Assembly (NCBI GenBank): GCA_028554755.1
Contig: JAPTOF010000010.1
Coordinates: forward strand, 15,094,501 to 15,158,500
Source: Cordia subcordata
Taxonomy: Eukaryota > Streptophyta > Magnoliopsida > Boraginales > Cordiaceae
Direction of reading: 5' to 3'
Length of the DNA: 64,000 nucleotides
Every line of letters begins with the position of its first letter. The first letter of the stretch is position 1. Shown here piece after piece: positions 1-55,682 of this stretch. The notes beneath the pieces are model-generated. The model did not search any database. It was given only the letters and a program-made list of their open reading frames with translations, and was not told where the DNA came from. The position numbers were made by a program, and so were the translations under genes.

Positions 1-3000
1 CTCACGTTGCACTTGGTTTCGCCTCGGTTGTTTCTTCTTTCACCCAGTCACTTCCAAATGCATTTTTCTTTGTTTCTTTATGTCCGTAACACCCTTTGAT
101 TTGTTCTAAACTTCAAGCACCCTCAATTGAGCTTTAATTATCTTCCCAAATCACACCTAAATCAAGCAATAAATGTACATTAGTGTAGAATTTAGGTCTT
201 AACTTCGACTATGAACATGTAAACCTTAATATACACAATTATGACCTAAATACTATACTAATACATTAAATGAAGCTTAAAAGATCTCAAAACATGTATA
301 TAATTGCAATACATAAGCACGCAAAATGAACACATCAGATATATTACTATTTGATAGTGATATTGTTAATCACGATCATAAATGTATTTTATTTGTTCTA
401 AACAAACTTGGCATAAGAGAAATCAATTAGCTGTGGAGTGTCAAATGATCATCTATTAGTTGATGAGGTATAAGGTCTATAGTGAATAATTGTCTTCATA
501 GTGGATGGTATACATGCTAGCTTGTAGATCTATATTCAAAAGTTGGATGAGCCTTCCTATGCATTTGATGGCATGGAGGGACATAAAAGATCTAATATGC
601 TATCTTCGACACTTACTTGAGGGATGGAATGTCTATGTACTATACAAGTTAGAATAGATAAAGAAGCAAATATCATTTGATTACTTCTTTCAAGAAGATA
701 ATCAAGTATATTATTCTTGCCCCTCAATAATCGCTTCCCTTCTTGAATTGGTTCAAGACTTGCAAGTCAATTGTTGATTATAATGGACATTTTGAGCTGC
801 TAGGTATCTTTTAGTAAGATAACCAGCTTCAAAAGAGAACATTATTTCAGTGAGAGGTGATTCATCCATCAAAGTGAGGTTTAGAACCCTACCAGTAGTA
901 GCAATTAGTTCATATGCGATATGTCTCTGAATGTCCAAACACTAGAAGAAGAAGAGTCTTCAGAGTCTAGTGTTGTTATATCCCAAAAGATTAAAGTAGC
1001 AAGTGGTTGCTGCATGATGTACGTATATGATAACACATTGCAAATTCAGTTGATCCTACTAGCTTTGTATAAGATACAGACAGTCCTTGTAACTTGTTAC
1101 AGTGGAATTATTGACTAGTAGAGATAAACGTGATACTAATGTTATTATGAACAATGTTATTATCATGCACTGTAAACTGAAATAAGCTTATCCTTCTAGC
1201 ATAAGTTATGTTGGCCAGGATGATGTGATTCTATGATCTGGTCATAGAAATAAATATCCTTAAGTCAATTGTTTGCCTAGAAGAGAATAAGATTCTTATA
1301 TAATGGACTCCTACTACTTTACAATAATTGAATGGTTTATTAGAAAGGAGAAATCAAACAATGTTGGAAATATTTTGATCCATTATGTAACTTATGGTTT
1401 TGACCATATCCTTTGGATGTATATTTGAGACAAATGCTTAAATGTTGAGCTATAACATCTAGCAGGTCAGTGGATAAGATACCATATAAGATATGGCATG
1501 ATAGTAAGCTATACACTTTTACCAAAGGGTCAAAGAAATGTCTAGCATATATCAAGTGTCTTATCATTGACAAACTGGAATAGAATTTTGTTAAGTGTTT
1601 AAAAGATTTCCTAGAAAGTCTAGTGAATTTGAGTTCTATAAAGGTGGTGAATAATAAGTTCCATTAACCAGAAAAAGATCTTTTCAAGAAAGAATTTCTT
1701 AAACAAGACTCTCTGATAATGAGCTTATGAAGTTCTAAATCGGAGAATATAACACTAATAGTTGAACATAAAAAACAAGATAAGGTTAAGAACTAGGAAC
1801 CAAGTCGTGGGCCAATTAAAGAAGCATCACTAAGGTGATTTGGTATGGTACCACGTCAAATGGAAAAGTGTTAAATCCTTATCTAAGGTGGAAGTTCCAT
1901 TGAACTATTAAAGAACGGTGTGAATTTAATTACTTGTAAAGATGTTGGATAGCGGCATAACTCTAAGAACTTGCTTAGCTTAATCTGAGGCAATCCTTCA
2001 AGAAACCACAAATGTCAGCAATGTATGGACACTAGTTGGCTACATATTGGGTAAGACCCATAGAGTGAAAAAATGGTTCATGATGGATTTTCAGTAGGTT
2101 GAAACCTATATTGCACAACTCGTTGTTAGAGGCCTTGTGAATATTGTAGTTTGACTATGACAAGACATTTCCACTAATGATAATACTCGAATTCATTTGC
2201 ATCATTCATGTCTGAGATGCATGTATGTATCATGAAATCTTATCAGTAGGTGCCTAGATTGCTTTCTCTCAAAGTGGATATATGTGACATAGTTGAATAG
2301 TTCACATCTATTGGCGAGATTATAGAGCATATGTCTAATTGGCTCATGAGTGGTCTTGTGCAAGTATTTTGGGTTAATACTTAGTTAGCAAAGTATAAAA
2401 ACATATGCCTTCGTTAAGGATGAAGAGTGCCCTATATCTATTAGTAGGCTAATGATCATGTAATTGTTTATAGTATAGTAATGTAAATGACATTTTTGAT
2501 ACTATAAAATGGAAACTATATATATTATCTTTGTTCTCCAAAAACATCTTCAAAAAGGCATCCTGTGTGCTTGGGATCATAATTTATAAGGATAGATTCA
2601 TGAGGTTAATGGGATTGTCTAGTACACATACATTGATTTCATGTTGAAATAGTTCAACATATTGAATTCTTGAAAAGGTTTTTGGGAAGTCCTTATTCAA
2701 GAAAATGTGTTTAACAATTTTCTCTAGAGAAGGATGTATGATTAAAATCCTAATTGCTTAGACAATAGGATTTACTAAGTATATTGTATCATGTACAAGG
2801 CCTTACGAGGCATACTTTCCCAATATTACCAACTTGTGTCATCATGATCCTAAGAAGCATTAGTAATAGGTGGGGCGATCCTTTAGCAATTAGAATGCAA
2901 AAGTACCTAGGGCTTATTTATGGAGAGTTTGAAGCTAATTAGTTAGACTAACTTTAGTTTCTAGTTAGACAAAGATGATAGCTACACTAATTGAGATTAT

Positions 3001-3184
3001 GTTTGCTAGAAGAGTTCTAAGCATATGATTGGATGTTACCACCTTCTTTATGCTAAAGGCAATGATCATTTGCAAATAATATATAGCAAAGAATGTTTTG
3101 CTGACCCTTTAGCAAAAGCCTTCGGGATCATGAAAAAACGGGTATAAGATATAGATCCGACTAGATTTAGTCCAACTAGGAGAT
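1..3184 (+). mobile_element. Decayed internal region of Ty1/copia element A
   Basis: This is plus-strand retrotransposon internal sequence leading into the LTR at 3185. Only its last 650 bp are recognisable as copia pol; upstream I find no frame of useful length and no clear gag, protease or integrase motif. A 61-residue minus-strand frame at 753-938 matches nothing I know and is probably chance. The purine-rich stretch just before 3185 (ACTAGGAGAT) fits a polypurine tract. The 5' LTR should lie left of the window. The lineage is unresolved. Confidence 0.6.
2540..3150 (+). pseudogene. Copia RT C-terminus and RNase H remnant (element A)
   Basis: Translating across several frames gives fragments typical of copia reverse transcriptase and RNase H. 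LGIIIYKDR followed by GLSSTHT resembles the RT thumb, and SCTRPY resembles the segment preceding RNase H. DDSYTN sits where the GYTDAS..DDS..SGY motif is expected. FADPLAKA near 3095-3120 is the usual copia C-terminus. In-frame stops and shifts occur throughout, so no product is possible. The order and strand, ending about 40 bp before the LTR, fit the 3' end of a copia polyprotein. The call rests on short motifs only. Confidence 0.55.
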
Positions 3185-4771
3185 TGTTAGGAATGGTGTC
3201 CTAAAGTTAGTCATCTATTATAGATTCTGTACTAATTTATACATGAATCGTCTTACTTTTAGCCTTAGATCATATCGCACATCTTTTCCTCAATTGTTAG
3301 ATCATGACATAGTCCTTAGAATAACCTAATGGGGCCATGTGAATGAGAAATAGCTGGGGTTGTCCTTAAATCACTTCATAACCTAATGATAGGATCGACA
3401 CTAGGACATCGATTCTATCAAACATAGGCTATAGTGCATCACATGAGTTGGTTATCCTCATAACCAAGGGCTGTAGAGACACTAGTATGACCCATGGTGA
3501 GGTGTACAGACATGCTCACTGAATATGACTCCATTACGAGCATCTTATGGTATGTACCGTACTGTTAAAGGATAGCTTTTGGTGTACATGGATGTTGTAT
3601 TCCCTTAGACTTGAGATCATCATAGAGACTTGTAGATTACTCCCCATGCTTTGGTACTAGACTATTTGGATTTTTAATCCGGTGACGAAATGTTGTTGAG
3701 TATGGGCAAGTGTCGCGAAGTCAGTGCGTAGGCCAAGATGGGATTGACCACTCTAGGTAGAGAATGATATTCTGTTTAGTCCTAATTCATTAAGACTTTG
3801 GCCAGAGCTTTTCGCATGATGTGTCACGTAGTTACATGATGATGAGTCATGACGAGATTAGGAATTGATATGGAATAGCTGAATAGGGGTTTGAAAATTT
3901 TACCATGCCCCTAGGGTTATTTTTGAATATTGAGGGTTGTAGGGAATCCACCATAGTGCCTAGGTTTGTTGAATATTGTCTTGTAACTATTCGGCTTATT
4001 CGAACATCGGGAACCGTTGCTAGATGGTATCATTGATTAGTATAAGAATAGTTCTTATATTACCAGTTTAAGTTTAAACTTATGGAGTCACGTACATGGT
4101 CAGGAATTAGTTGAAGAATCAACCCTACTATAATAATGTTGGTCACATTTAATTATAAATTAAATATGTTATTATTTAATTATGAATTAAATAATACTAT
4201 AAGTAATTAACCTTATAGATATTTAATTGAGAATTAAATATTATACTTATAATAATAATATTTAATTACTTATTACAGATCACAGAATTGATTTTGACTA
4301 TGTCTAACTAGCATTAGATATGTTGATCAAAATTAATTCATGGGCTATTATTTATGAATTAAATATGGATTTAGTTTGGGCTTTCTTATGGATTTAGGAA
4401 GTCCATTATTCTAAGCCCAAAGAGTTAGGCTTATTGGGTTATGGGGATGGACTTTATGGAAAGCTCATATCTCTCTATACAAGGAGAGTTCTCATTATTT
4501 CTTGGACGTGGGTTTTTGAGAAAAGCTGATTACAAAAATTAGTTATCAAAATTCTCTCCCAACCCCTAAACTAGAATAGTCTCCTCCAACAATTCTTGAT
4601 AGAGTACGAAGGAGAGGAGCTCGATGTTTTTGCAAGGCAATTTTTGAAATTTTTCAAGGATTTCGTGCATATTCGAGGTAATCCTATATTCATTTCTTGA
4701 AATTTCTGATTGAGAGCTTGATCCTGTGTGAGAAAATTTGGTGAAAGTCATTACGATTTCCTATAGTTGCA
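3185..4771 (+). repeat. 3' LTR of copia element A
   Basis: The LTR begins TGTTAGGAATGG directly after a purine-rich tract and ends near ATAGTTGCA, about 1.59 kb. It contains an AT-rich segment at 4148-4270 of short near-palindromic repeats (ATTTAATTATAAATTAAAT and variants). The right edge is inferred from where homology of the neighbouring minus-strand LTR stops, so it is uncertain by a few bases. It appears to have inserted into that LTR. Confidence 0.6.
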
Positions 4772-5347
4772 CATACATGTCCTAATTGATTAGAACACAA
4801 CACCTAACGTATGAGGCAGATAATCTTATCACTCAAGGCCTCTCCTCATGATACATCAAAGTGTTGTACCTTAACTTCAATGGTTCATCCACATTTGCTC
4901 AAGATTGAAAGTATTGGTCACTCGAAAGTAGTGAGTATCTTGTCCTCTATAAATGATGGCACAGTTCCACAAGATACACTTACGGTGGTCCTATCCAATA
5001 CATGACACACTTACTAGAAGTGAAGTCCAGAAGGACCCTCTAATGACTTATGTAGATTAACCCTATCAAGAGACTTGCTCACTATAGCCTTATCCTAAGA
5101 GAGTGTCCAACACTACCGTTTGGCTATGTACATCTTTATAATATATTCAAAACTAGACTTGGACCTACTGTACATCTAGCCTGGGTGCATCCAAGTCATT
5201 GGATTATATCATTGAACCTTTACACAATGTATCACACAAATATACCAAAGATAATATATGTAAGAAGTGCTCATCAATAAAATAAATGATCATATGTCTA
5301 GCTTGATATCCGTGTAATAGTGCTCTTTAGAGCATACAATCCTAACA
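4772..5347 (-). repeat. LTR fragment, same family as the solo LTR at 7311-9067
   Basis: On the minus strand it starts TGTTAGGATT at 5347 and is collinear with the first ~590 bp of the solo LTR at 9067-8480, for example around GGTCCAAGTCTAG and CATGTATTGGATAGGACCA. It interrupts the RT frame of copia element B at 5348. Homology ends near 4772, where element A's LTR begins. The missing ~1.1 kb should lie beyond element A, left of the window. No TSD can be checked because the other end is absent. Confidence 0.65.
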
Positions 5348-13653: not shown

Positions 13654-13735
13654 TTGGCTAGATTTAAAGCCAAGACCTAGTCCATCTAAGGTCGACTAAC
13701 CTACCCTGAAATCCATTAGCTGGATTTAAAGTTAA
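13654..13735. repeat. Two LTR hairpin repeats (N1)
   Basis: 13654-13673 is TTGGCT-AGATTTAA-AGCCAA. 13716-13735 is TTAGCT-GGATTTAA-AGTTAA, with one G-U type pair. Both form six-pair stems on an eight-base loop and match the hairpins of N2 and the solo LTR at 54331. Confidence 0.7.
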
Positions 13736-16997: not shown

Positions 16998-17397
16998 CTT
17001 ATTGATGTGTGTGTATCAAGTTTTAGACCCGCAAGCATACGGATCGTTTGTGGTATAGTGGATTCGAGTGCGGGTATCGTCTCCACGGGGAAGCTACCTT
17101 AGTTTAGTTTCTATGTGCTCGGGTGCCTTAAACTAGCTACGTGCGTATGTGTGCTTACTTTAGGATGGAAGGGAGCTCAGGGAAAAAAAAAAGAAAATAA
17201 AAACTAATCTATGGAGGAACTTAAATGAGCCAAACTAAGGAAGGAAAAAAACTAACAAAGAAGAAGGGGACCTAGGGCGATTGCATTGCAGCTAGACTTG
17301 GGCTATGATAATGGATGAGGTCTATCTAAGGCTCGGGACTTCTATTGCTGTTGTGTTGATCCGGGGCTCTCTTAACCAATACTAGTGGTTTAACCTA

Positions 17398-17658
17398 TTA
17401 GCTGGATTTAAAGCTAAGGGCCAATCCCTCCTAGCCTACGCAATCTGTGATTAGAACTTATCCTCTTGGCTGGATTTAAAGCCAAGGACTAGCACCTAAA
17501 CACTACATGACATTAAGGCTCGATTAACCAACACTAACGTGGGTGAAGGATACTCTAGTCTATGTTAACTTATCCACTTGGCTGGATTTAAAGCCAAGGA
17601 CTACCACCTAAACTCGACTAAGCATAGCAAGTAACCTATTAGCTGGATTTAAAGCTAA
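17398..17658. repeat. Four co-varying hairpin repeats (LTR-a)
   Basis: Copies lie at 17398-17417 (TTAGCT/AGCTAA), 17466-17485 and 17578-17597 (TTGGCT/AGCCAA), and 17639-17658 (TTAGCT/AGCTAA). All have the identical loop GGATTTAA. The third stem pair changes A-T to G-C between copies on both sides at once. Confidence 0.8.
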
Positions 17659-18157
17659 AGCCTACTCTACTAAGCGAAGCCATGAGATTAAGCACAATCA
17701 CATCACCCATATAAGTAGATAAGAGCATTTGAATCAAAAATAACACAAGCATATTCACTTAGGCATTTTAACAAACACATAGACATGTTTGATTTCCAAT
17801 ACATAGACATATTGAATCATGCCATATATTTATGTAAACAAACATATATCAAGAGCCAAAGATCTATACAAATCTATTATTCAAAGCCCTAATCTAATAT
17901 ACAACAACAATAAACCATAAATGTAGCCTAATCTAGCAACATATTTACAAGAAATAGAGAAAGAACAAGAAGAACTTCCCTAAATTCTTGCTTCCAAATT
18001 CGTACAAATCCATCAAATATTTGTTTGATGCTTCAATACTAGCTTGGTATGGGGTTTAGATGATGGTTTAGGGTGTTTGGTGAAGTGGGCAAAGGGTTAG
18101 GATTTATTAGGGTTTTAAAAACAAAAGTTCCTCCTCTCAAAATCAGCTGAAACGAGC

Positions 18158-18345
18158 TTTTTATGGATTTCTTTAGCGCATAGCCGGTTGACCGGCTCCT
18201 CTTTCTTGCTCAACCGGCTTCAATCATGATGCTCTCTGGAATGGCCGGTCGACCTAACTGGTCGACCAGCTCCTTGAGGAACTTGATCGGCTTAGGTTCT
18301 TTATTCTCTGGAGCGGCCGGTCGACCGGCTCTTCTCTAAGTTCAT
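18158..18345 (-). promoter_or_regulatory. Putative LTR promoter with GC island (LTR-a)
   Basis: The minus strand has CCATAAAAAGCTCG as a TATA-like site. Upstream are GCCGGTTGACCGGC and the perfect 14-bp palindrome GCCGGTCGACCGGC at 18316-18329, in otherwise AT-rich DNA. Confidence 0.45.
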
Positions 18346-18866
18346 CAGCTAGATCAGAATGATCCATTCTTCATTCCTTTTGTTTCGGTCTTCATTCATT
18401 AGCTCATTTCTTTCTCGTGTAAGCTTGAACCCTTCCAAAACACTCCTAAAACATGGAATATAACACTTAGTATAGTATTTGATGTGTGCTATTCGAGTTT
18501 TACACCCGCAAGCGTACGGATCGTTCATGGTATAATGGATTCGAGTGCGGGTATCATCTCCACTGGGAGGCTACCTTAGTTTAGTCTCTATGTGCTCGAG
18601 TGCCTCAAATTAGCTATATGCGTGAGTGTGCTTACTTTAGACTGGAAGGGAGCTCGAAAAGAGGAAAATAAAAACTAATCTATGGAGGAACTTAAAGGAG
18701 CCAAACTAAGGAACGAAAAACTAACAAAGAAGAAGGGGAGCTAGGGTGATTGCATTGCAGCTAGACTTGGGCTATGATAATGGATGAGGTCTATCTAAGG
18801 CTCGGGACTTCTATTGCCATTGTGTTGATCCGGGACTCTCTTAACCAATACTAGTGGTTTAACCTA

Positions 18867-19127
18867 TTAGCTGGATTTAAAGCTAAGGGCCAATCCCTGC
18901 TAGCCTACGCAATCTGTGATTAGAACTTATCCTCTTGGTTGGATTTAAAGCCAAGGACTAGCACCTAAACACTACGTGACATTAAGGCTCGATTAACCAA
19001 CACTAACGTGGGTGAGGGATACTCTAGTCTAAGTTAACTTATTCGCTTGGCTGGATTTAAAGCCAAGGACTAGCACCTAAACTTGACTAAGCATAGCATG
19101 TAACCTATTAGCTGGATTTAAAGCTAA
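18867..19127. repeat. Four hairpin repeats (LTR-b)
   Basis: 18867-18886 is TTAGCT/AGCTAA. 18935-18954 is TTGGTT/AGCCAA, with a G-U type pair. 19047-19066 is TTGGCT/AGCCAA. 19108-19127 is TTAGCT/AGCTAA. All four have loop GGATTTAA. Confidence 0.8.
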
Positions 19128-19623
19128 AGCCTACTCTACTAAGCAAAACCATGAGATTAAGCACAATCACATCACCCATATAAGTAGATAAGAGCATTTG
19201 AAGCACAAATAACACATGCATATTCACTTAGGCATTTTAACAAACACATAGACATGTTTGATTTCCAATACATAGACATATTGAATCATGCCATATATTT
19301 ATGTAAACAAACATGTATTAAGAGCCAAAGATCTGCACAAATCCATTATTTAAAGCCCTCATCTAATATACAACAACAATCAACCCTAAATCTAGCCTAA
19401 TCTAGCGACATATTTACAAGAAATAGAGAAAGAACAAGAAGAACTTCTCTAAATTCTTGCTTCCAAATCCGTACAAATCCTTCAAATCTTTGTTTAATGC
19501 TTCAATCCCAGCTTCGTATGGGGTTTAGATGGTGGTTTAGGGTGTTTGGTGAAGTGGGTAAAAGGTTAGGGTTTATTAGGATTTTAGAAATAAAAGTTCA
19601 TCCCCCAAAAATGAGCTGAAATG

Positions 19624-19930
19624 AGTAATTTATAAACAGCTTCAGTGCACAGCCGGTCGACCGACTCCTTGATAAACTCGACCGGCTTACTAATGGGGGC
19701 TTTCTGACTTGGCCGGTCAACCTGGAAATGAGTAATTTGTAAACAACTTCAGCGTACAGCCGGTCAACCAGCTCCTTGATAAACTCGACTGGCTTACTAA
19801 TGGGGGCTTTCTGACTTGGCCGGTCGACCTAGCCTATCGACCAGCTCTAGAGGGCAACTCGACTAGCTCAATTTTTATGTTCTCTGGGGCGGCCGATCGA
19901 CCAGTTTCTTCCGAGTTGACCGCCTAGGTC
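19624..19930 (-). promoter_or_regulatory. Putative LTR promoter with duplicated GC island (LTR-b)
   Basis: The minus strand has a TTTATAAATTAC TATA-like site at 19637-19624. Upstream is an expanded array of GCCGGTCGACC-type half and full palindromes, enlarged by the local tandem duplication that also copied the TATA-like site. Confidence 0.45.
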
Positions 19931-20322
19931 AGAATGCTCCCTTCTTCATTCCTTTTCTTCTAGTCTTCATCCGTTAGCTCATTTCTTCCTCGTGTAAGCT
20001 CGAACCCTTCTAAAACATAGAATATAACACTTAGTGTAGTATTTATGCATCTAAATACATTATGTACAAATATTAACAAATATGCATAAACTTTATACTA
20101 AGTATGCTCAATTATACTCTAGACACCCTTAAATGTGCATGCAAAAACTACATGCAAACACGCACAAATGACACACATCAGTATTTATGCATCTAAATAC
20201 ATTATGTACAAATATTAACAAATATGTATAAACTTTATACTAAGTGCCCTCAATTATACTCTAGACACCCTTAAATGTGCATGCAAAAGCTAGATGTAAA
20301 CACGCACAAATGACACACATCA

Positions 20323-21818
20323 ACACCCCTAAACCTTCCCTTTGCTTGTCCTCAAGCAAGCCTAAATGAAGTCTATCCTCATGTTTTTCAAAGAGTTGCC
20401 AATTGCATTGACTTGTTATCTTTTCGCATCCAAGGGGTACAAGGGGTCATTCCTTTCATGTAAGGGCTTCCCTAGTCTTTTTCGGATCCTCCTTTCAATC
20501 ACACGGGGTCTCGTACCTCTTAGGAATGTCACCAAGTAGCTAGAACCACCACAAACTTAGGATTCTAACTCACACACTCGGGATGTTAATACTTCATGCT
20601 TTATCAACTAACATGGCCTCCCAATATGCACTTAGCCCCAAAGATACAAGGAAGAGAAGATACATCACAATGGCTCACATTGACGTAAGAGCCTTATTCA
20701 TAACACATGAAAGAACAAAAGAGATACTTGTGTCAACTTGACATTATGTCACTTGACACTTATTCAACATACTTCACTTTTCAATCTTTTTGTTGCCTTT
20801 TTGGCTTTTTTTCTTTTTTTTATTTCATTTTTTTAAATACAAAAATAGAACAAAAAGAAAGGAAAAAGAAGAGGCTAAGGCACATTAAACGAACCAATCA
20901 AGGAATGGGCACTCATATCAACAACCCTTTAAAAACACTTTTTTTTCAACCAAGTTATGGGGAAACTGTAAGGTGCATTCTCAGAAATGCTCACTCCCCA
21001 CAGTTTTTAAAAGGATTCTCTTCAAAGTCTAGGTCATACCCTACACTCCATTTACTCCCCACAATACAACCCCATCTTCTCCAATCAATTAAGTCAATAG
21101 CAAAAGCCAACTCTCCAACCAATGTTGAGATAAACCAACTCAAAATATGCAAAAAATTAAAAAATTTGAACACATTTTAAGCAAAAATAAGATATGGCAA
21201 GAAAATCTATCCCATATATGATATAAACAATAAATGAGCAACCACACCCCCAAACCTAAACTTTGCTTGTCCTCAAGCAAAAATCACAAAGCCACACGAC
21301 AAGCAATCAACATGAAACACATATGGGGAATGCGGAGAGGGATAGATAAGGACAAGTAAAAGATGGATAGATACAACCTTGTTTCCATGTAGTCCGCAAA
21401 TGCCAAAGACAATCCAATGATCTACTAGCCTCTATCTTTTGTGGAAAGCACTAATGCTCAAAAAAACAAAGAAGAGATTAAAAGATATGCTATGCAAGTT
21501 CACATTGACATTTGAAATGATAAACAAGGGGTAAAGGATTGATGCACAAATGAAGGAAAGAAGCAAGAACAAGTAAGGGATCAAAAATCTAACCTACTGA
21601 AAATGAAAACAAACAAAAGAAAGCCTAAAATATCAAAAGGTAAGATAAACAAAAGCAATCTAATCTATTATGTGCAAAGCAAAAATAAGTACAAGAAAAC
21701 TAAGCTACTATATACAAAGGCAAAGGCAAATAAATACAAGACAAACAAGAAAAATATGAACAAGCCTAGGATACCTCCTAGTAGCACTAGATTTAACGCC
21801 TCCAGCCGGGCGCCTATG
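20323..21818 (-). other. N2 3' non-coding region with polypurine tract
   Basis: Next to LTR-b the minus strand reads GGGAAGGTTTAGGGGTGT, a polypurine tract, after CTTGCTTGAGGACAAGC, a short inverted repeat. A second TTGCTTGAGGACAAGCAAAG copy lies near 21265. The rest is A-rich with no credible frame. Blocks of it match N1 (14976 onward) and the Athila element (56684 onward). Confidence 0.7.
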
Positions 21819-23723: not shown

Positions 23724-23856
23724 TGAATCACAAGTAAAACCTCTTCACAATCAATTTTTTTTTAAGTTTTCAAAAAATGGAAAGCAAGTAAAGATAGTGT
23801 ACACGCAAGTAACCAATCACAAACACAAAAGCACACAAAGAACCAATACCGTGCCT

Positions 23857-23873
23857 CCCCAGCAACGGCGCCA
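23857..23873 (-). other. Primer-binding site of N2 (tRNA-Asp type)
   Basis: The minus strand reads TGGCGCCGTTGCTGGGG six bases inside the 5' LTR. It differs by one base from the TGGCGCCGTTGCCGGGG PBS common in Tat/Athila gypsy elements. Confidence 0.85.
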
Positions 23874-24277
23874 AAAAGTTGATGTGTGCGTATTGAGTTT
23901 TACACCCGCAAGTGTATGGATCGTTCGTGGTATAGTGGATTCGAGTGCGGGTATCATCTCCACAGGAAGGCTACCTTAGTTTAGTCTCTATGTGCTCGAG
24001 TGCCTTAAACTAGCTACGTGCGTATGTGTGCTTACTTTAGGATAGAAGGGAGCTCAGAAAAAAAAAAAAAAGAAAATCAAAACTAATCTATGGAGGAACT
24101 TAAATGAGCCAAACTAAGGAAGGAAAAAACTAACAAAGAATAAGGGGACCTAGGGTGATTGCATTGCAGCTAGACTTGGGCTATGATAACGGATGAGGTC
24201 TATCTAAGGCTCGAGACTTCTATTGCCGTTGTGTTGATCTGGGGCTCTCTTAACCAGTACTAGTGGTTTAACCCATT

Positions 24278-24489
24278 AGCCGGATTTAAAATCCTCTTGG
24301 CTGGATTTAAAGCCAAGGACTAGCACCTAAACACTACGTGACATTAAGGCTCGATTAACCAACACTAACGTAGGTGAATGATACTCTAGTCTAGGTTAAC
24401 TTATCAACTTGGCTGGATTTAAAGCTAAGGACTAGCACCTAAACTGGACTAAGCATAGCATGTAACCTGTTAGCTAGATTTAAAGCTAA
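24278..24489. repeat. Hairpin repeats with a hairpin-to-hairpin deletion (LTR-c)
   Basis: The 5' arm TTAGCC-GGATTTAA runs directly into the intact copy at 24297-24316 (TTGGCT/AGCCAA). Others are 24409-24428 (TTGGCT/AGCTAA, one wobble) and 24470-24489 (TTAGCT-AGATTTAA-AGCTAA). Confidence 0.75.
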
Positions 24490-24988
24490 AGCCTACTCTA
24501 CTGAGCAAAGCCATGAGATTAAGCACAGTCACATCACCCATATAAGTAGATAACAGCAATTGAAGCACAAATAACACATGCATATTCACTTAGGCATTTT
24601 AACAAACACATAGACATGTTTGATTTCCAATATATAGGCATATTGAATCATGCCATATATTTATGTAAACAAACATATATTAAGAGCCAAAGATCTACAC
24701 AAATCCATTATTCAAAACCCTAATCTAATATACAGCAACAATCAACCCTAAATCTAGCCTAATCTAGCAACATATTTACAAAAAATAGAGAAAGAACAAG
24801 AAGAACTTCCTTAAATTCTTGCTTCCAAATCCATACAAATCCTTCAAATCTTTGTTTAATGTTTCAATCCTAGCTTGGTGTAGGGTTTAGATGGTGGTTT
24901 AGGGTGTTTGGTGAAGTGGGCAAAGGGTTAGGATTTATTAGGGTTTTAAAAACAAAAGTTCCTCCTATCAAAATTAGCTGAAACGAGC

Positions 24989-25160
24989 TTTTTATGGATT
25001 TCTTCAGCGCATAGCCGGTCAACCGGCTTCTCTTTCTTGCTCGACCAACTTCGATCATGATGCTCTCTGGAATGGTCGGTCAACCTAGCCGGTTGATCAG
25101 CTCTTTGAGGAACTCGACCGGCTTAGATTCTTTATTCTCTAGAGCGGCCGGTCGACCGTC
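24989..25160 (-). promoter_or_regulatory. Putative LTR promoter with GC island (LTR-c)
   Basis: The minus strand has the TATA-like CCATAAAAAGCTCG. Directly upstream are GCCGGTCAACCGGC, GGTCGGTCAACC and CGGCCGGTCGACCG blocks. As this is the 5' LTR, it is the promoter position expected to drive N2. Confidence 0.45.
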
Positions 25161-25440
25161 TAAGTTGACTGGCTGGATCAGAATGATCCATTCTTCATTC
25201 TTTTTGTTTCGGTCTTCATTTATTAGCTCATTTCTTCCTCGTGTAAGCTTGAACCCTTCCAAAACACTCCTAAAACATGGAATATAACACTTAGTATAGT
25301 ATTTATGCATCTAAATACATTATGTACAAATATTAACAAATATGCATAAACTTTATACTAAGTGCACTTAATTATACTCTAGACACCTTTAAATGTGCAT
25401 GCAAAAACTAGATGCAAACATGCACAAATGACACATATCA

Positions 25441-32935: not shown

Positions 32936-34283
32936 TGATGGGCGTCAAAACTACCAAAAATAATATTCCAATTCTTACCTCGCAAAGTTAATTAGAGTAC
33001 GTGATGAATCCACGGGGATTGGGAGAATATTTTATGCTTATTATACCAAGTAGATTAATCAACTAAGTTGCAATCAAAAAGGGGGGAATTAAATGCAAAA
33101 CATTAAAATAAATAAGGCTATCCAAACCACTGGTCACACTGTGTGGGCACATAATTTGGCTAGAAAATAAAAAAACATAAATAAAAATTAAAATGACTAA
33201 AATATGAAATTCTAAATTAATGCAAGGCTGGAAACACAGAAAATCAACGAGAATAAAATCTAGCCTGAGGAACAATCACAATTTCGGTCAACAAATTCGA
33301 TCCTATATGCAAAAATACTTTCAACTATTTCAATAAATCAGTTATAGTTATTGGCTCGGCCTAATAACCTCATCTTTCCTTACAGATTTGATAACGGTTT
33401 AAATCCCTATGATTTTTCCTGTTATTCCCTTACCTATTAGACGTTCTAATCCCCGGAGATGCCCATAGGATCTATCTAACGGCAGTAATAAAATCTAGAA
33501 AGACCTGATTCTAAAAGTCAGTACTCTCGCGGTTATTGCTCATTTAGATTACGTAATTACACAGGAAACCTGATTACCACTATATTTAGATTAATTTCAT
33601 TAATCTAACTGGCTACCTATTGTCACGCAATTAAATAATCGCGTGCAAAATTAAATAATAACAGATCAATATTAATTATTAAAACAGTAAATACGCAAAT
33701 ACCGAAATAGAATGAAAAGAATAAAAACACTTAGATCTCACGAATTTGATAAACCAAAATCTTCATTAGTCCTCAGCTAGAGTAGAAAATTAGAGCAACT
33801 TGTCCATGAATATTGCCCAAAGAATAAAGAGAAAATTTAATGTTATCTGCTAAAAGCTGTCTACCTCTAAAGTACAAATAAGAGGTATTTATATAAAAAA
33901 CCCTAACCTATTTTCCTTATTGGATAAAGAAACCTGGCCCAAAAAGAATAATAAGGTAAAAGCCTAAATATAAGTTCCAACAAAATAAAAAGTCTGCTAA
34001 TATTTAATCTAATTCCTTCCAAAAGCCCAGAAAAAATATTTTCCATCTTGATCAACCCGGTCAAACCCGCGTAGCAATTAGATGGCATTTTTCCACGTGA
34101 CGGTGTCAACTTTGACCGCTACAAACACGTCCAAAAAGCTTCTATATCCATATGTAATGCATCCAACTCCTTTTCCTAAGCACAATTATGCAAAATTACA
34201 TTAAAAACATCGATTAAAAAGCATTCTATTCCAAAATCAAGTACATCTAACATATAAATTAAACACTTATTTAGAACTTATCA
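32936..34283 (-). repeat. 3' LTR of Athila-1
   Basis: It is 1,348 bp and ends TTTAGAACTTATCA. Compared with the 5' LTR it lacks ~13 bp at 33008 (GAGAATAGGGTCG in the partner). Many differences between the two LTRs are C/T or G/A, as expected after decay of methylated cytosines. Confidence 0.9.
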
Positions 34284-36183
34284 AATTCCCCCACACTTGA
34301 ACCATGCTTGCCCTCAAGCATGAAAACAATAAGGAACAGGGCATTCACATGCAAGACTGACCAAGACTGAAATTATGCAAAGATTCCAAGTTTTACAACA
34401 AAAAATAATGCAAGTCCTGCAATTACAATTTTTGTACTTTCATAAACATAACTAACTTCAAAGAATACAAAGTACATAATAAAGTTAAGACATATGTTCA
34501 TCAAAGCTTCAACTTCACAGTTCATCTACCAATTTTATCATTCTACATTTCATCATGTCACCATTCAATCACAGGAACATAATCATTCAAGCTCAACCTC
34601 TCAACATATGTACAAGTCCTGACCCAATTCAAGCATTTATAAAAACAAGCAAGTTAACATACTGACAAACTAAGTGTTCTTCTTCTTTCAACCAACTTGC
34701 AATGTTTTTAGCCAAAAGAGTGCACTAATTTTGCAAATTCCTACAGCACTTTTTCCAAAAGTAAGACTTGACTTGACCAAAGATTTTCAAAAAGAAGCCT
34801 AACTTAGCAAGAAAATTCCCACAAATAAACATCTTCATCAAAAATATAGCCACAAACTTCCCTCAAGAATAATTCCATCAGAATTTTCCACTGGACTTTA
34901 AACTAACTCAACCATCCATCAAAGTAAAAACACGCACATAAACCTTCAAAAGTTCCTCCACCTCAACTCAAAGAAACTCGAAAGGAAAAACAAAGGTAAG
35001 CCAGTTTTTCAGCAAGTCAAAACAAGAACCACCACATGTACAAGTCACCTTGCTAGCACCCAAAACACTATATAAATGAACCTTGCACCATTTAAGCACA
35101 CAAAAGAGATTTAAGCCAAGTATGATTATGCTAATGCAAAGAAGAGATCAAAGCACTGCCTTGATGTGCAATTTTTCCTCAAAGAAAATAAGTTTGTGCC
35201 TTGGCCTAGCTACCGGAAAGCCGGATCACTTCAACTGCCCTTTTTTCACAATTTTCATGAATTGCCTAGAATGTCATCCACCCTTTTTATGCGATGACAA
35301 ACATTTATGATGAATGCCCCAGGTTACTCAGTTGGTCACAATTCTAGGTGGCTTTTAGCTCTACTCATGAATCTCCGTTTTTTTCTTTCTTTTGGAGAAC
35401 AGCGGAGTAAAAAGGTACGCATTTACCTTGATTTCATGCATTCTTCCAGTTTTTTTTTACACTTTCATTACTTTTGCAGGAGTGACCTCAACCCCGACAT
35501 AACTTTCCTAGATATGCAGTTTTTCACAATTTTATCACAAAAATAAATCAAGACAAGTATCTCTCAAACTCAAACTAAGCATTAGCTTCCAATTTAAGCG
35601 CATGCACATTTTTAGCCCAAGTTAAGATTAAGTAAGGTTCAAGCATAGCGTGTTCAAGTGTCTATCAAGGGACAAAAACAATGGGGATGGATTCATTGCA
35701 CGTACTAACTTGCCATTGCAATCAAAGCAAGTTTCCCAAGCATGGGGATTAGATTTTTTTCATGAGGAATGCCAAGCTTACAAAGTTAACAGTTGAGCCA
35801 AAAATATTTGGACAAATAAAGCTAAGGAAACAAAAACTTGACCAAAACTCTTTTTTCTATTTTTTGTTTTCATTTTTTTCATTCATTTTTCCATGAAGAC
35901 AAGACACAGGAAGACTCAAACAATGCTAAATAAAACACAATTACTCATAAAGACTCGAATTACCATATAAAGACACATCTAAGTATAAGCAAGACTCAAA
36001 ATAAAAGACAAAAAACAAAAACACAAAGCAGTCCTCCCCCACACTTAGCATACACATTGTCCTCAATGTGGAAATAAAAGAAAGCAGACAAAGAAGAAAT
36101 AAGGACAAAAACAAAAAAAATAAGAAAAAGAAAAAAAAATCTGAGGACTTCCCTAAAACACAAGTGAGGGAGTTGTGTGGCTG
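34284..36183 (-). other. Athila-1 3' non-coding region with PPT
   Basis: The minus strand ends AAGTGTGGGGGAATT, a polypurine tract, right before the 3' LTR. It is preceded by CATGCTTGAGGGCAAGCATG, a perfect inverted repeat apart from its centre. A second TGTCCTCAATGTGG / CCACACTTAGCAT block sits near 36040. The rest is pyrimidine- and A-rich with no credible gene. Confidence 0.7.
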
Positions 36184-37565
36184 TCAAGCATCTGAATCGG
36201 GACCATGGTACCCCCACGCATAAATGAACTCCTCCAATTTAGCCAACCTAGTGGATTGATCAGCGAGAGATGCTTCAATACAAGCAAGTCGAGCATCGTC
36301 TACAGTCTGGGCCGTGGAAGTGGACAGGCCTGCCAAGTGAGAAGCTGAGGCTTCATGAGTCTCCCCCGTAGGTTCACCGCCCTGACGAGCTCCCTGCACA
36401 ACGAAAATAAACCTATCTTCGTCCTTTCAGACAAGATTCATAGCTTGCAAACATGGTAGATCAAGATATGCAATGTCAAAGGCTTTAGTGAGAGCAATGG
36501 AGCGTGACCTAAAGCGAGTCTGTGTATGGGCAATATGAATAATAAAAGATCCAAAAATGAGTGGCCTCCTACTAGAATGAAGTAAAGTTTGCAAATGCTG
36601 AAGAAGCCAATAACCAAAGTTAACTCCTTTCTTATGAACCATGCACCAAAAGAAAAAGAGTTCCATTTTTGTTAGAACTGCAGGATTATCGGCTCTTCCT
36701 GAAAAGGAATATGCCAAAAAACGATGGATATAAAGTAGTGCAGGATTTTCAAGAAACTGATCGCATGTGGTGCTAGGTCTATAGGGGAGGGGATCTCTAG
36801 GAGCCAATTCTTTATAAGCCAATGCGGCATCAAAATCAGGGGGAAAAGTGCAATAACTGTGCAAATACTCCTCAGTAGCAGAAAATCTTCTAGTAATGAA
36901 TTCAAGCATAAGGTTAAACTCAGTCACAGATAGAGAAAAATCATTACTCATCAAACGAAAGTGAACACGATTCGGTGTGTTAATAGTCATAGTGCCCGAC
37001 ATGTCAAACTTAAAAGTGGCATAAAATTCACGCGTAAGTTCATAAAAAGTAGCCTTATGGATAGATTCATATTTCCTCAGACCAACATTATCAAGAAATG
37101 CTAACACTTCAGATTGTAAACCAAGCAATTCTAGTGCAGCTAAATCTATCGTCTTATAAGCATATAAGTCTCGAGAAAACATTTCATTATACCTTCACGA
37201 TGTTCAGGGTTGATGAATAATGGAGCAATAGGTGGAAGAGTTGTGTCCGTACCTTACAAAACTCGGCCAACCGTTATTCGAAATTGGCGGCCCAAATATG
37301 GAAGTGGTGGTGCAACCAGTGGGGCTGTCGTGGCTTGTTCCGGCGTTGTAGCTACAGCCGTGTCATCGCTATCTGTTGAAGATGCTGATGAAGTAGTTGA
37401 TGGTGTAGAATCATGAGACAGGGAATCCAGAATAATCTCGATAGTATTTGGCAAATTTCTGCCCTGAAAAGTGCGCACACGACTGGTTGGAGGTGACTGC
37501 ACCTGCAACGCAATATGTTGGCTACGACAATGGGGTGATTCACCGGTGGATTTTTTTCTGTCCAT
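36184..37565 (-). pseudogene. ATHILA ORF1-type gene in the envelope position
   Basis: Three consecutive minus frames make up one gene. 37565-37254 is a Ser/Thr/Pro-rich N-terminus. 37182-36427 (251 aa) is the core, with EFYATFKFDMSGTM, VHFRLMSNDFSLSVTEFNLM, ENPALLYIHRFLAYSFSGR and ELFFFWCMVHKKGVNFGYWL. 36399-36184 has an alanine-rich, coiled-coil-like tail. The core resembles the ATHILA ORF-1 family, of unknown function, encoded 3' of pol in Athila elements. It lies where envelope-like genes occur. The 251-aa core is intact, which is unusual in this element. Confidence 0.65.
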
Positions 37566-38965
37566 TACTGAGCTTCAAAAGGCACTGATGGTGATACAGA
37601 CAAAGAGAAGAACTGGATGAAATCAAAATAAGTGCAAATACTATAACACAACTAAGTCTTCCTGAATTTTTTTTTTTCAACAGCTTCTGCCTTCTTTTTT
37701 TTTTTTCAAAATTTAATGAACCACAGTACCTAATTTACCCAACAAAAAGTTTCAAGAATTGTCGGATTGCTGCAGCGGCGCAGGTGTTGGATGGTGGCAG
37801 GTGGTTGTTGGGTAGTATTGGTGATGGCAGAGGACAACAATGCTGAACGATGGTGCTACGATGATAATGATGATGCTGCTGGTTAGGGAAGCTTGGTGAC
37901 ACAGCGGTGAAGGTGAAGCACGAGATGATGATGATGATGTGTGATGACGCCGCGGCGGAAGCTATTAGATGGTGACCGATGGTTGTGGCGCCAAAATTTG
38001 ATGGGTCTTGATGATGACGGAAGATGAAGATATGGTGGTTATAGTGTCAATATAGGGAGAGCTCGGCAGAAGAGAGAGAAATGGCTGTGTGTGTGTGTCA
38101 AAGGTGATGATAGTGAATGATGGTGGTGCTGTCGTAGATGGTGGTCACAGCAGGTTGGTTAGTTGGCGCAAAGAAGATGATGATAACGATGGCGAGATGC
38201 TCAGCAGAAAAGAAAATAATGATGATAACGGTGAGAATGATGATGATGACCGCTGGGTGTGTTGGTTGCTCACTGGTGTGTTGATGATGATGCTATGAAG
38301 AATGGTAAGATGTTGACGTGGTGGAGATGATAATGGTGATGCTGCCGGTTAGGGAAGCTGGGTGACGTTGGGGGAGGATGATGATATTTGATGGTGGTGG
38401 TTGCTAAGGGAGCCGATAAGGGTGAAAATAATTGGGATTGGGATTTTGAAATTAGGTCTGATAAGGTTTGGGGAATTAGGAATAAAGGAAAATTGGGTAT
38501 TAATTGTTATCTATTTAGGAATTGACCCACAGTTTTTTTTTTTTCCTCGCAAATTAAGCTCCATTACACCATTTTTATTTCAAAATCAACTTCCTTTTCT
38601 TATGTCTTCAAACTACCCTGTACCTGCAGCAATCCAAACTTCCAAGTATCACCATTAATCCATAATCAGGGTTTTCCATGAAGAAGATGAGCAGGAAAAT
38701 AATAATAAAATTAATAATAAATAAAAATAAAAATAAATAAAATAAAATAATACAAAAACTATTAGAAAAAATCCTAAAAATTGAAGAAAACTGATAAAAA
38801 ATTTGCAAAAATTAAAAACAAACACAAAATGAAATTTCGAATCCTGTGGGTTGCCGCCCAGCAGCGCCTTTGTTTAACGTCGTCTATTCGATGTTTCGGA
38901 ACGACTACTCGTATTCTGTGGGTGCTTCCAACATCAATTCTTCCACCGTTTGCACATTAAATTCA
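37566..38965. other. Spacer between integrase and ORF1, GAT-rich
   Basis: The stretch 37780-38400 is dominated on the plus strand by GATGATG and GGTGGT runs. It includes a ~45-bp direct repeat (CTGSYGGTTAGGGAAGCTKGGTGAC near 37877 and 38339). 38690-38820 is an (A/T)-rich AAATAAAAATAA stretch. Plus-strand frames here are low-complexity artefacts. Confidence 0.6.
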
Positions 38966-40358: not shown

Positions 40359-40729
40359 CCTTTTTTGCTAAAAGATATCGCAGTGCTGCATGATCAGAAT
40401 AAACAATCACTTTAGTACCAAGCAAATATGAACGAAATTTTTCTAAAGCAAAAATTATCGCTAAAAGCTCCTTTTCTATGATGGAATAATTGCTTTGAGC
40501 CTTGTCCAATGTCCTAGAGGCGTAATATATGACGTGAGGCAACTCATTGGCCTAGGACAACTCCAATCGCATGGTCACTCGTATCGCACATGATTTCAAA
40601 CGAAAGATCCCAACTACGAGGTTGGATAATTGGGGTTGAAATCAACTTCTCTTTCAACTTGTCAAAAGCTTTCTTGCATTCCTCGTTGAATTCGAACACA
40701 GCACCTTTTTGAAGAAGCTTACATAACAG
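40294..40729 (-). pseudogene. Athila-1 RNase H
   Basis: The frame 40542-40294 begins [20 protein letters not shown], then [18 protein letters not shown] and [20 protein letters not shown]. This is standard gypsy RNase H with the later catalytic D of the SDHAAL motif kept. The upstream part (40545-40729) is broken by stops. Confidence 0.85.
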
Positions 40730-44289: not shown

Positions 44290-44317
44290 TAAAAAAGTAA
44301 AAATATCAGCACCAATT

Positions 44318-44333
44318 CCCGGCAATGGCGCCA
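44318..44333 (-). other. Primer-binding site of Athila-1 (tRNA-Asp type)
   Basis: The minus strand reads TGGCGCCATTGCCGGG five bases inside the 5' LTR. This is the PBS usual for Athila/Tat elements, with one transition. Confidence 0.88.
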
Positions 44334-44338
44334 AAATT

Positions 44339-52990: not shown

Positions 52991-54584
52991 TGATGTCATT
53001 TTAAAAACACACAATTGCACGGATCGGAAGTAGTATAGTATGTGCAAGAGTACGGTTATCGTCTCGTCAAGGAGGTCTCCAACCATGGTTTCTAAGTCCT
53101 ATGTGTCTTGGATTATCTACATGTAGAAACGAAATTATTTTTGAGATTTTTTTTTAATTTTGAATTGAAGGGAACCCTAAATTAAAGACCAAATTAAACT
53201 ACCTAAACTAACATGTGCAATAAAAAGACAAACAAACTAGAGAGGGAACGATTAAATAAAAAAAAGAAGGACTATGGTGATTACTACTCTATTATGGGGT
53301 TGGGATTTTATTCTTGCTTTGAGTATTTTGATGGCTTTGATAGCTTCTTTTAAAGGTCCAAACTCATTAACCATATTATCTCCAATTCTCAGTGCAATTC
53401 TATCCCTAAGTGGATCTCACTTAGAGCATAGCCTTGTCCTTCTTAGCTAGGGTTTTAGGGCTTAGTTGGTTGACACTTCTAGATCAGCATCATTAATACA
53501 CTAACCTAGGGTTTAAATCGTTAACTTTGTTTCAAGCTAAGGCCTAATTCACCTAAGTTCAACTAAGTGTAATGAGTGACCTATTAGTTTTATTTCATCT
53601 TAAAGACCACACATTAAACCTAATTATAAAATCAAGCACAATTAATCAACACCATATAAGCAGATACAAAAAATTAAGATCATAATAATACATGTTTCTT
53701 CATTAAGGCAATTAATCAAACACACAGACATGCCCAACAATCACCATTAAAACAATAAAAACCAAACATGTATTTAGACCATCAAAATATCTCAAGACAA
53801 GTTTTACAATCCTTAACCCATAATAGAAATAGTAATCAACCCTAAAATAAATTTAGCTCAACATGTTAAAAGAGTGTATCAAACTGAAATTTAATCTCAT
53901 AAAAAGTCAATTGCATGTCCAAGAAATTAAACCTCAAGCTTAGAACATCTTCCCGTTTCAATTTCGCACAAATTTGTCTTCTTCTCCAAGATTTTTCTCC
54001 AATATTTGCTCCAAATTAGTCCCAAAAATCCTGTAGAAAATAGCTCAAATTAGCTAAAGATAAAAATTAAAAAAAATAAAACAAAAACAAAAAGATATTT
54101 TTTTAGAAATTTTTGGATTTTTTTTTATTTTTCTGATTTTTTTCTCTCTTGGCCTGAGAAGAAGCTGAAATCTTTTCTTTTCTATTACTATGCGACTACT
54201 ACTTCCCTCTTTTTTTTTCTTCTTTGCTTGCTACAGATTTATATGTGTGTGTGTTTTAATTTGTAGTGGGGTGGGGTTAATGGGTAGGTATTTTTTTTTT
54301 TTGGTGTGTTTGAGTTTATAGTAATATATATGATGTGTTGTGTTTTTGTGTGTGTTTGCATTGTAATTTACCTATGTTTAAGAAGTATTAAGTGCTCAAA
54401 AAGATGCATTGGTATAGTACTTTTGATAAGAATAGGCTTCACCGTAAACAAATGTACATATTGAGTTTAAGAGACAAATTGCTACACTAATTTCTTGTTT
54501 TCAATGATTTAGGCGAACTTTGGGTTAAGATCGAGATTGGGCAATGATAGGTGATAGAGATGGGAGATGTACGAGTCAAAAGGA

Positions 54585-54823
54585 GAAAATCGGAGGCCGG
54601 AAAGACAAAGAATGGAGGAAAGAAGTTAGCCGGACGACCAAGAATAAGGAACCGGTCGACCGGCCACTCCAGAGAGATGCCAAAAATAGCCGGACGACCA
54701 CCCCTCCAAAGCCGGTGGACCGGCTTGGTCGACCGACCACTCCAGAAAGCATCACCAAAAAGCCAGTCGAGCTAAGAGAAGAAGTTCGGTCGACCGGTAG
54801 TTTGTGAAAAGCGATATAAAAGC
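54585..54823 (+). promoter_or_regulatory. Putative LTR promoter with GC island (solo LTR)
   Basis: Roughly 60-bp imperfect tandem units each pair GCCGGACGACC with a full palindrome: CCGGTCGACCGG at 54652-54663, CCGGTGGACCGG at 54712-54723 and CGGTCGACCGGT near 54787. GATATAAAAGCCC, a good TATA box, follows at 54814. Confidence 0.5.
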
Positions 54824-55599
54824 CCAATTTTCAGACTAAAATGAGGGCTTTTTGATAATTTTAGAGAGGATCTTTACACACCCATCACCCACACACGTAC
54901 ACACACATTTAATCCTAGTCTTCACCTACAACACACACACTCTTTCACATATTTCATCACTTTGGAGCAAGAGAATTTAGAGCGCTTCAACATTTGGATT
55001 TAAGTTTGCTCAAGAGCTTTGTACAAGAATAGCTAGGATGAAAGGGAAGCTTCATAAACTCTCTTTCATTCTATCTTTTATTATGATTGAGTAGACTTGT
55101 GTAGGGTGATTTGACTTATGTAATGGGTTAGCTATATACTCTTATGATATGGGATTAAATGGATGATTATATATACATGTTTGATTTTCTTGTTCAAATG
55201 ATTATTTTCTCATTCAAGTCTAAGTGTTTGATTAAATGCCTAAATGAGTAACATGTGTATCAATTATAGTCTATTTATTACTAAACACATCTAATCTATG
55301 CTATAATCATGTCTATGCGTTTATATGTGGATGCTATGAAGTGGGTAATGCTTATATTCATGTCTATGTGTATATTTGCATGCCTAGTAGTGAATATGAC
55401 TTCAATAACACATACATGTCGGTTGTTAATTGCTTCTAATGGTGTAATCCAAGCATGATGATGTTTGGTAGTTGAATAGGTCCCTTTATTCGCGAACACC
55501 TTGGCTTAAAACATGTATGAATGTGTTAATAGGTTAAATCTCGCTATTGTGACCTTAGAATGATGAAGCATAATTTAGGGCTAGCCTAGGCTGACTCTT

Positions 55600-55682
55600 T
55601 TGCTTTAAATCCAGCCAATAGGTTTCAGGATAGGTTTAGTCGACCTTAGCGACACTAGGTCTTGGCTTTAAATCCAGCCAAT
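55600..55682. repeat. Two hairpin repeats (solo LTR)
   Basis: 55663-55682 is TTGGCT-TTAAATCC-AGCCAA, the reverse complement of the N1/N2 hairpin, as expected for an LTR in the opposite orientation. 55600-55619 is a slightly degraded copy (TTTGCT arm). Confidence 0.7.

What the first reader, a model, noticed from the sequence alone, without database searches (positions are those of the whole stretch)
17398..17658. Repeated LTR hairpin with a co-varying stem
The motif TTRGCT-GGATTTAA-AGCYAA occurs four times in LTR-a and four in LTR-b, with three intact copies in LTR-c, two in the N1 LTR and two, reversed, in the solo LTR at 54331. The loop is almost invariant. The stem switches between TTAGCT/AGCTAA and TTGGCT/AGCCAA, both sides changing together, and other copies carry single wobble pairs. 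Paired change with a fixed loop argues for selection on a folded RNA or cruciform DNA, not on primary sequence. The array lies in the R/U5 side of the LTR, so it would be in the genomic RNA leader. Possible roles are packaging, dimerisation, 3'-end formation or translation control. I know of no described family signal of this form.
Basis: partly seen in the sequence, partly recalled or inferred. Interest (0 to 1): 0.88.

Follow-up and report, generated by a model that had tools for sequence, protein, structure and literature searches.

The report
Paired RNA hairpins in retrotransposon leader
A very abundant family of plant jumping genes carries two to four near-identical RNA hairpins in the front part of its predicted transcript, kept paired as the sequence around them drifts, which suggests a recognition signal for the element's own coat protein, though this has not been tested at the bench.

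Summary
The motif is real and far above chance: 15 sites in the window against 0.02 expected, 9,401 exact copies in the 472-Mb genome. LTR-a, -b and -c run on the minus strand (primer-binding site at 23873-), so the sense hairpin is TTRGCT-TTAAATCC-AGCYAA, about 0.5-0.8 kb after a predicted TATA box and 0.58-0.66 kb before the primer-binding site: inside the predicted RNA leader. Within the window the A-T/G-C switch is confounded with hairpin position. Across LTR subfamilies the same positions switch on both sides, at several pairs. Pairing is kept in 15 of 19 internal-branch changes against 36 of 92 terminal ones (p=0.0016). Hairpins are the most conserved windows of the aligned leader, shared by a gag-pol element and by elements without gag-pol. 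Against: an all-pairs covariation test is not significant, and one-sided changes outnumber two-sided ones, as decay of dead copies predicts. A selected sense-RNA array is likely; recognition by Gag (packaging or dimerisation) is the leading, untested role.

The parts
17003..18479 (-). LTR-a (5' part missing)
   Evidence: 17002-18480 matches LTR-c 23879-25304 at 89.6%; sense minus by homology to LTR-c, which is followed by a PBS
18480..20322 (-). LTR-b, 3' LTR of the minus-strand element b-c
   Evidence: TGATGTGTG start after a purine-rich tract at 20322(-), CACACATCA end at 18480
20323..20340 (-). putative polypurine tract (GGGAAGGTTTAGGGGTGT) before LTR-b
   Evidence: similar tract before a TGATGTGT start in L022 and L034
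23880..25456 (-). LTR-c, 5' LTR of element b-c (5' boundary not mapped)
23856..23873 (-). primer-binding site TGGCGCCGTTGCTGGGGA
   Evidence: fixes the sense strand as minus
19628..19634 (-). TATA-box-like TATAAAT in LTR-b, 507 nt upstream of the first sense hairpin
17639..17658 (-). LTR-a hairpin 1 in sense order (A-T form), core stem-loop; model match 17624-17669
17578..17597 (-). LTR-a hairpin 2 (G-C form); model match 17563-17608
17466..17485 (-). LTR-a hairpin 3 (G-C form); model match 17451-17496
17398..17417 (-). LTR-a hairpin 4 (A-T form); model match 17383-17428
   Evidence: the four LTR-a hairpins are among the 14 sequences the model was built from
18867..19127 (-). LTR-b array of four hairpins (19108, 19047, 18935, 18867)
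24297..24489 (-). LTR-c array: three hairpins (24470, 24409, 24297); fourth reduced to loop and right arm
13654..13735 (-). N1 LTR two-hairpin array (13716 first in sense, 13654 second)
55599..55681 (+). solo LTR (54331-56225, sense plus) two-hairpin array
53506..53551 (-). possible diverged hairpin with a different loop (TGAAACAA) and a similar stem layout
   Evidence: covariance model R1, 23 bits, E=0.0018, rough calibration

Best explanation
Each LTR carries an array of two or four RNA hairpins in the long 5' leader (R/U5) of the genomic transcript of a Ty3/gypsy family with an Athila-type primer-binding site (Athila by recall). Each hairpin has an 8-nt, almost fixed loop (UUAAAUCC), a 6-bp inner stem, a one-base (sometimes two-base) 3' bulge and an outer stem of about 3-7 bp. 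Shown by sequence: orientation, position, conservation, pairing kept across subfamilies, and presence in a gag-pol element and in elements without gag-pol. Inferred: the array is transcribed; it is a cis-acting recognition site, most likely for the zinc-knuckle (nucleocapsid) part of Gag, marking genomic RNA for packaging and possibly dimerisation. Repetition would raise avidity, and the family without gag would keep it in order to be packaged in trans.
For: Hairpin windows are the top conservation peaks of the aligned leader (0.92 and 0.86 v mean 0.47 over 17 LTRs). A TATA box is predicted upstream in 10 of 23 four-hairpin and 13 of 26 two-hairpin LTRs with enough upstream sequence (my recount), and the PBS lies 577-662 nt after the first hairpin in 11 of 11 copies paired with one. 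RNAalifold on 24 two-hairpin LTRs finds both stems with 5 pairs changed on both sides; the named 22 pairs give 6 such pairs, 95.6% of cells paired, and a covariation score reached by 0 of 500 shuffles. Double changes: 7 of 7 keep pairing in 12 inner pairs, against 0.8 expected from wrong partners (p=1.4e-4). Internal v terminal branches: 15 of 19 v 36 of 92 keep pairing (p=0.0016); outer pairs, never used to find copies, 11 of 13 v 22 of 59 (p=0.0022). Genome-wide pair 5: 189 doubles v 47.9 expected. Sense fold is lower in energy than antisense for 93 of 147 distinct hairpins. L022 carries gag with a CX2CX4HX4C knuckle (motif read by eye), RT, RNase H and integrase between two-hairpin LTRs. 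The L034 element and the stretches between arrays of L017, L019 and L026 give no tblastn match to those four L022 pieces, yet L034 shares array, U5 end, PBS and PPT with L022.
Against: R-scape-like all-pairs test: best designed pair ranks 2nd of 17,955 but E=4.15. Inner pairs alone, with ascertainment masked: internal 2 kept / 3 broken. The excess of doubles falls to 11 v 4.15 expected (p=0.004) in the wider set, 2 of the 11 unpaired after. Sense is not more stable for H1 of two-hairpin LTRs (16 of 41) or lone hairpins (8 of 16). Further standard pair types are no more than in shuffles (18 v 18.0). L034 also shares about 1.4 kb of 3' internal sequence with L022, so the array is not the only shared part. 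About half of the LTRs scanned lack a TATA match at the expected place. No transcript ends, RNA probing or binding data; one genome only.
Confidence: 0.42

Rival explanations
1. The hairpins control translation or the structure of the predicted 1.1-1.4-kb leader (shunting, internal entry, scanning block), not packaging.
For: They lie in a long predicted leader; plant pararetroviral leaders with structure control translation and replication (start of the abstract of PMC5902531, listing).
Against: A fixed 8-nt loop repeated two to four times looks like a protein contact more than a steric block (inference); elements without gag-pol keep it, although L034 has an ORF of its own.
Confidence: 0.2
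2. Dyad-symmetric DNA sites: a dimeric DNA-binding protein or cruciform acts on the double strand, and symmetric half-sites co-vary because both arms are the same site.
For: Arms are perfect inverted repeats; palindromic repeats with dyad symmetry occur in Sirevirus LTRs (PMC2829016 passages).
Against: The outer stem of hairpin 2 pairs through G.U on the sense strand (U.G 33, G.U 39, G.U 42 of 49 LTRs), which would be A.C mismatches on the other strand; a 3' bulge breaks the DNA symmetry; the array lies downstream of the predicted TATA box, Sirevirus repeats upstream.
Confidence: 0.12
3. No selection on structure: two ancient hairpin variants were spread by duplication and gene conversion inside the array, which imitates covariation.
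For: In four-hairpin LTRs the forms follow array position; one-sided changes are common; all-pairs test not significant.
Against: Conversion cannot easily produce forms absent from the neighbouring hairpin (H2 TTGGTT/AACCAA beside H1 TTAGCT/AACTAA in L024_3667; CCC/GGG in H1 of LTRs with 62-nt spacing), nor outer-stem changes that keep pairing on internal branches (11 of 13).
Confidence: 0.13
4. The hairpins act in 3'-end formation or R-region strand transfer.
For: They lie after the predicted promoter within R or U5.
Against: No poly(A) site could be mapped; about 0.5-0.75 kb after the predicted start is long for R (inference); four copies are not needed for strand transfer (inference).
Confidence: 0.08

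Closest known systems
Retroviral leader packaging/dimerisation hairpins (Psi stem-loops; recalled, plus the start of the MMTV abstract PMC8096270 in the listing)
   Same: hairpins in the 5' leader upstream of gag, exposed loops, zinc-knuckle Gag
   Different: two to four near-identical hairpins with the same AU-rich 8-nt loop, inside the LTR-derived leader of a plant Ty3/gypsy family; no binding data
Ty1/Ty3 genomic RNA packaging determinants (PMC4974528, passages only)
   Same: LTR retrotransposons whose packaging is thought to rest on Gag recognising cis RNA
   Different: the six passages seen describe no repeated-hairpin signal; a packaging role for the Ty1 pseudoknot could not be shown; Ty3 needs the zinc finger
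Sirevirus palindromic repeated motifs (PMC2829016, passages only)
   Same: arrays of palindromic units in plant LTRs, conserved within elements
   Different: Ty1/copia, upstream of the TATA box, mostly a CGG-CCG core, read as DNA transcription sites; here Ty3/gypsy, downstream of the predicted TATA, G.U pairs, bulge, covarying stems
Retrozymes (hammerhead ribozymes in plant LTRs; PMC4918200, start of abstract in the listing)
   Same: structured RNA encoded in plant LTRs
   Different: no Rfam family reached its gathering score in the window

Membership tests
Ty3/gypsy LTR retrotransposon | gag, then RT-RNase H-integrase order between LTRs | tested here: met
   L022: Retrotrans_gag, RVT_1, RT_RNaseH, Integrase_H2C2, rve in that order between array LTRs
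Athila lineage | RT phylogeny within OTA/Athila | not tested
   no reference set used; the passages read of PMC6317226 give the clade names only
Athila lineage | primer-binding site for tRNA-Asp (recalled) | tested here: inconclusive
   TGGCGCCRTTGCCGGGGA and close variants after array LTRs; match to tRNA-Asp rests on recall
Athila lineage | Athila ORF-1 domain (in 16% of Athila elements) | tested here: not met
   no such Pfam hit in the 7 ORFs of L022 or the ORFs of L034 tested; most Athila lack it, so weak
Retroviral-type packaging signal | structured leader RNA between promoter and gag | tested here: met
   (prediction only; no transcript ends)
Retroviral-type packaging signal | specific Gag/nucleocapsid binding needed for encapsidation | not testable with these tools
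   needs binding and particle assays
Sirevirus repeated motif | palindromic units upstream of the TATA box with CGG-CCG core | tested here: not met
   array downstream of the predicted TATA, no such core in the motif
Any Rfam family | score at or above gathering | tested here: not met
   0 matches in the window

The most novel reading that the evidence does not exclude
An undescribed repeated-hairpin encapsidation code in plant Ty3/gypsy elements: Gag reads an invariant UUAAAUCC loop on a bulged stem, two to four times per RNA, and families without gag parasitise the same Gag by keeping, and in one case doubling, the array.
Probability: 0.3. Interest if true: 0.85.

Novelty: new variant of a known kind. 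Interest (0 to 1): 0.66.

Why it matters
How plant LTR retrotransposons choose their own RNA is, to my knowledge (recalled), largely open, and in the listings seen here (PMC open-licence library; titles and starts of abstracts) no paper describing a repeated covarying leader hairpin in plant LTRs appeared. With 9,401 exact copies in one genome and several subfamilies, this is a compact and testable candidate for such a signal, and it links a family without gag-pol to a gag-pol family that may mobilise it.

Tried and rejected
Rfam scan at gathering scores: nothing. The gag-pol element at 32936-45694 in the window was checked as the partner: different LTR, and neither the motif scan nor the hairpin model hits it. 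Wobble asymmetry as a strand test: pair 3 favours sense G.U (257 v 175, p=9e-5) but pair 5 goes the other way (192 v 1,191), so I do not use it. All-pairs R-scape-like test on 52 arrays: not significant. Trees on 226-470 columns are shallow and partly unsupported, so event counts vary (7 double of 31; 11 of 127). The pair-of-loops pattern search (GGATTTAA twice, spaced) did not complete. The UUUAAA palindrome at the loop as a kissing-dimer site was considered but not tested.

Rows dropped before counts: searches left out loci L049-L068 and L084-L088 (picked for mismatched stems), L029 (truncated four-hairpin array), also L032 (near-duplicate of L031), four-hairpin LTRs and single hairpins, and arrays whose two hairpins were not 50-70 nt apart; 49 LTRs remained. 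L089-L103 were picked for paired doubles at pair 5, and most of L069-L083 for intact A-T stems; one search masks for this. One search aligned 24 of the 48 distinct arrays listed (the two-hairpin ones except one near-copy of L022). One search's 17 LTRs were chosen for divergence from 29 extracted. One search includes L049-L068. The 100-row tally inside one search was transcribed by hand and is not used. One row of alignment A2 was mis-specified; A3 leaves it out and re-cuts two others.

Full report
What is there. The motif is present at the stated coordinates and is far above chance (15 sites, 0.02 expected). In the 472-Mb genome that holds the window it occurs 9,401 times exactly, 4,575 and 4,826 on the two strands, with none for the reversed control.

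Which strand. LTR-c is followed on the minus strand by TGGCGCCGTTGCTGGGGAGGCA at 23873, and LTR-b is preceded on the minus strand by a purine-rich tract. LTR-a, -b and -c are therefore read on the minus strand and the RNA carries TTRGCT-TTAAATCC-AGCYAA. The same order is seen in 11 copies in which an array and a primer-binding site were paired (L019, L020, L022, L027, L028, L033, L034, L035, L036, L040 and the window): the site lies 577-662 nt after the start of the first hairpin. Other rows belong to lone hairpins, to other elements or to chance. A TATA-type box recurs about 506 nt upstream of the first hairpin in 10 of 23 four-hairpin LTRs, and 670-796 nt upstream in 13 of 26 two-hairpin LTRs, counting only rows with enough upstream sequence (my recount). 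So the array is predicted to lie in the RNA leader. Transcript ends were not available.

Shape. Reading outward from the loop in sense, the inner six pairs are followed by a one-base 3' bulge (two bases in hairpins 2 and 3 of four-hairpin LTRs) and an outer stem: CCT/AGG in the first hairpin and CTAGGTC/GGTTTAG in the second of the short arrays, TTGGCCC/GGGTTGA in the fourth of the long arrays. The outer stem of the second hairpin contains three wobble pairs that hold on the sense strand only (U.G in 33, G.U in 39, G.U in 42 of 49 LTRs). Sense folds are lower in energy than antisense in 93 of 147 distinct hairpins (p=2e-6; copies are related), but not for the first hairpin of two-hairpin LTRs (16 of 41) or lone hairpins (8 of 16).

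Arrays. The 40 fetched loci of the first round plus the window gave 59 groups: 22 with four hairpins (spacing close to 61/112/68), 1 with three, 29 with two (mostly 62-63 nt apart) and 7 lone hairpins. The pairs carry the forms (G-C,G-C), (A-T,A-T) and (A-T,G-C). Because spacing and flanks align, the two hairpins of the short arrays can be compared position by position. This removes most of the duplication problem that the window alone cannot resolve.

Paired change. On a tree built without hairpin columns (52 arrays) the 12 inner pairs show 31 changes: 7 two-sided, all 7 still paired, and 24 one-sided, 17 of them breaking the pair. Wrong partners inside the same stems give 0.8 two-sided changes per 12 pairs (p=1.4e-4); partners taken across the two hairpins give 3. 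RNAalifold, given only 24 aligned two-hairpin LTRs, returns bulged stems at both places with five pairs changed on both sides; it leaves out the two innermost pairs of the first hairpin. For the 22 named pairs 95.6% of cells are paired, six pairs have two-sided changes (3 of 500 shuffles reach that), and no shuffle reaches the covariation score; the number of pair types is no higher than in shuffles. Relatedness makes that control lenient. In a wider set of 49 LTRs there are 11 two-sided changes (9 paired after) against 4.15 expected (p=0.004), and there the pair-3 switch of the first hairpin is reconstructed stepwise. The cleanest contrast is internal against terminal branches: changes from a paired state keep pairing in 15 of 19 internal and 36 of 92 terminal cases (p=0.0016); for outer pairs, which played no part in finding copies, 11 of 13 and 22 of 59 (p=0.0022); with ascertainment masking, all pairs, 13 of 18 and 33 of 86 (p=0.009); inner pairs alone after masking are too few (2 of 5 v 11 of 27). 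Terminal branches are mostly inserted, decaying copies, which is why one-sided changes are common overall (inference).

Genome-wide counts. Pair 3: A-T 3,082, G-C 5,887, sense G.U 257, sense A.C 175. Pair 5: intact 9,401, left change only 192, right change only 1,191, both 189 against 47.9 expected. Counts are copies, not events. The excess of the right-side mismatch fits C-to-T decay at the CAG/CTG site at the loop-stem junction (inference).

Results against. An R-scape-like test over all 17,955 column pairs of 52 arrays ranks the pair-3 partners of the first hairpin second, with E=4.15; only if limited to about 25 proposed pairs would this be near 0.006 (my arithmetic). Trees are shallow. 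All data come from one genome.

What it may do. The two hairpins are the strongest conservation peaks across 17 diverse LTRs (0.92 and 0.86 against a mean of 0.47). L022 is a gag-pol element whose two-hairpin arrays lie 9.4 kb apart, with a zinc knuckle in gag. L034 holds a shorter element with four-hairpin arrays 5.3 kb apart. Its 551-aa and 209-aa ORFs have no Pfam match above cut-off, and gag, RT, RNase H and integrase pieces of L022 find nothing in it, nor between the arrays of L017, L019 and L026; they do match the gag-pol element into which L034 is inserted. L022 and L034 share the array, the U5 end with PBS, about 1.4 kb of 3' internal sequence, PPT and U3, but not the middle. A cis-acting site that a family without gag keeps is best read as something the partner's Gag machinery recognises; packaging is my first choice, dimerisation second. 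I put a selected sense-RNA structure at about 0.8 and Gag recognition at about 0.4.

Literature. Passages of a Sirevirus paper (PMC2829016) describe palindromic repeat arrays upstream of the TATA box, read as DNA sites. [quoted passage not shown] The search listings showed no paper on a repeated covarying leader hairpin in plant LTRs; they show only the best-ranked titles, and most subscription papers are not in that library.

Noticed in passing
17003-17100 (-), the same zone of LTR-b and of L022: The U5 end has a conserved block with complementary CCCGC/GCGGG arms shortly before the PBS, a possible second conserved stem.
   Followed up: no
window 53506-53551 (-): Hairpin-model hit (E=0.0018) with a similar stem layout but a different loop (TGAAACAA), with an AACTAATAGG arm upstream: perhaps a far-diverged LTR family with another loop.
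   Followed up: partly
20172-20322: The LTR-b start is duplicated in tandem by about 142 bp (two TGATGTGTGTCATTTG starts at 20322 and 20180).
   Followed up: no
32936-45694: A gag-pol Ty3/gypsy element (LTR pair 92.7% identical, PBS-like TTGGCGCCATTGCC) whose LTR lacks the hairpins.
   Followed up: partly
L034 (C1:21538200-21548000): The element without gag-pol sits inside a gag-pol element related to L022: both flanks match adjoining L022 stretches (1834-4230 and 4226-4843) and carry gag and RT pieces.
   Followed up: partly
L034:3736-5391 (-): 551-aa ORF without a Pfam match above cut-off in the family without gag-pol, a possible family-specific protein.
   Followed up: partly
loop end and right arm, CCAGC: Loop variant TTAAATCT and right-arm AACYAA look like the two deamination products of one CAG/CTG site, common in decayed copies (inference).
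   Followed up: partly
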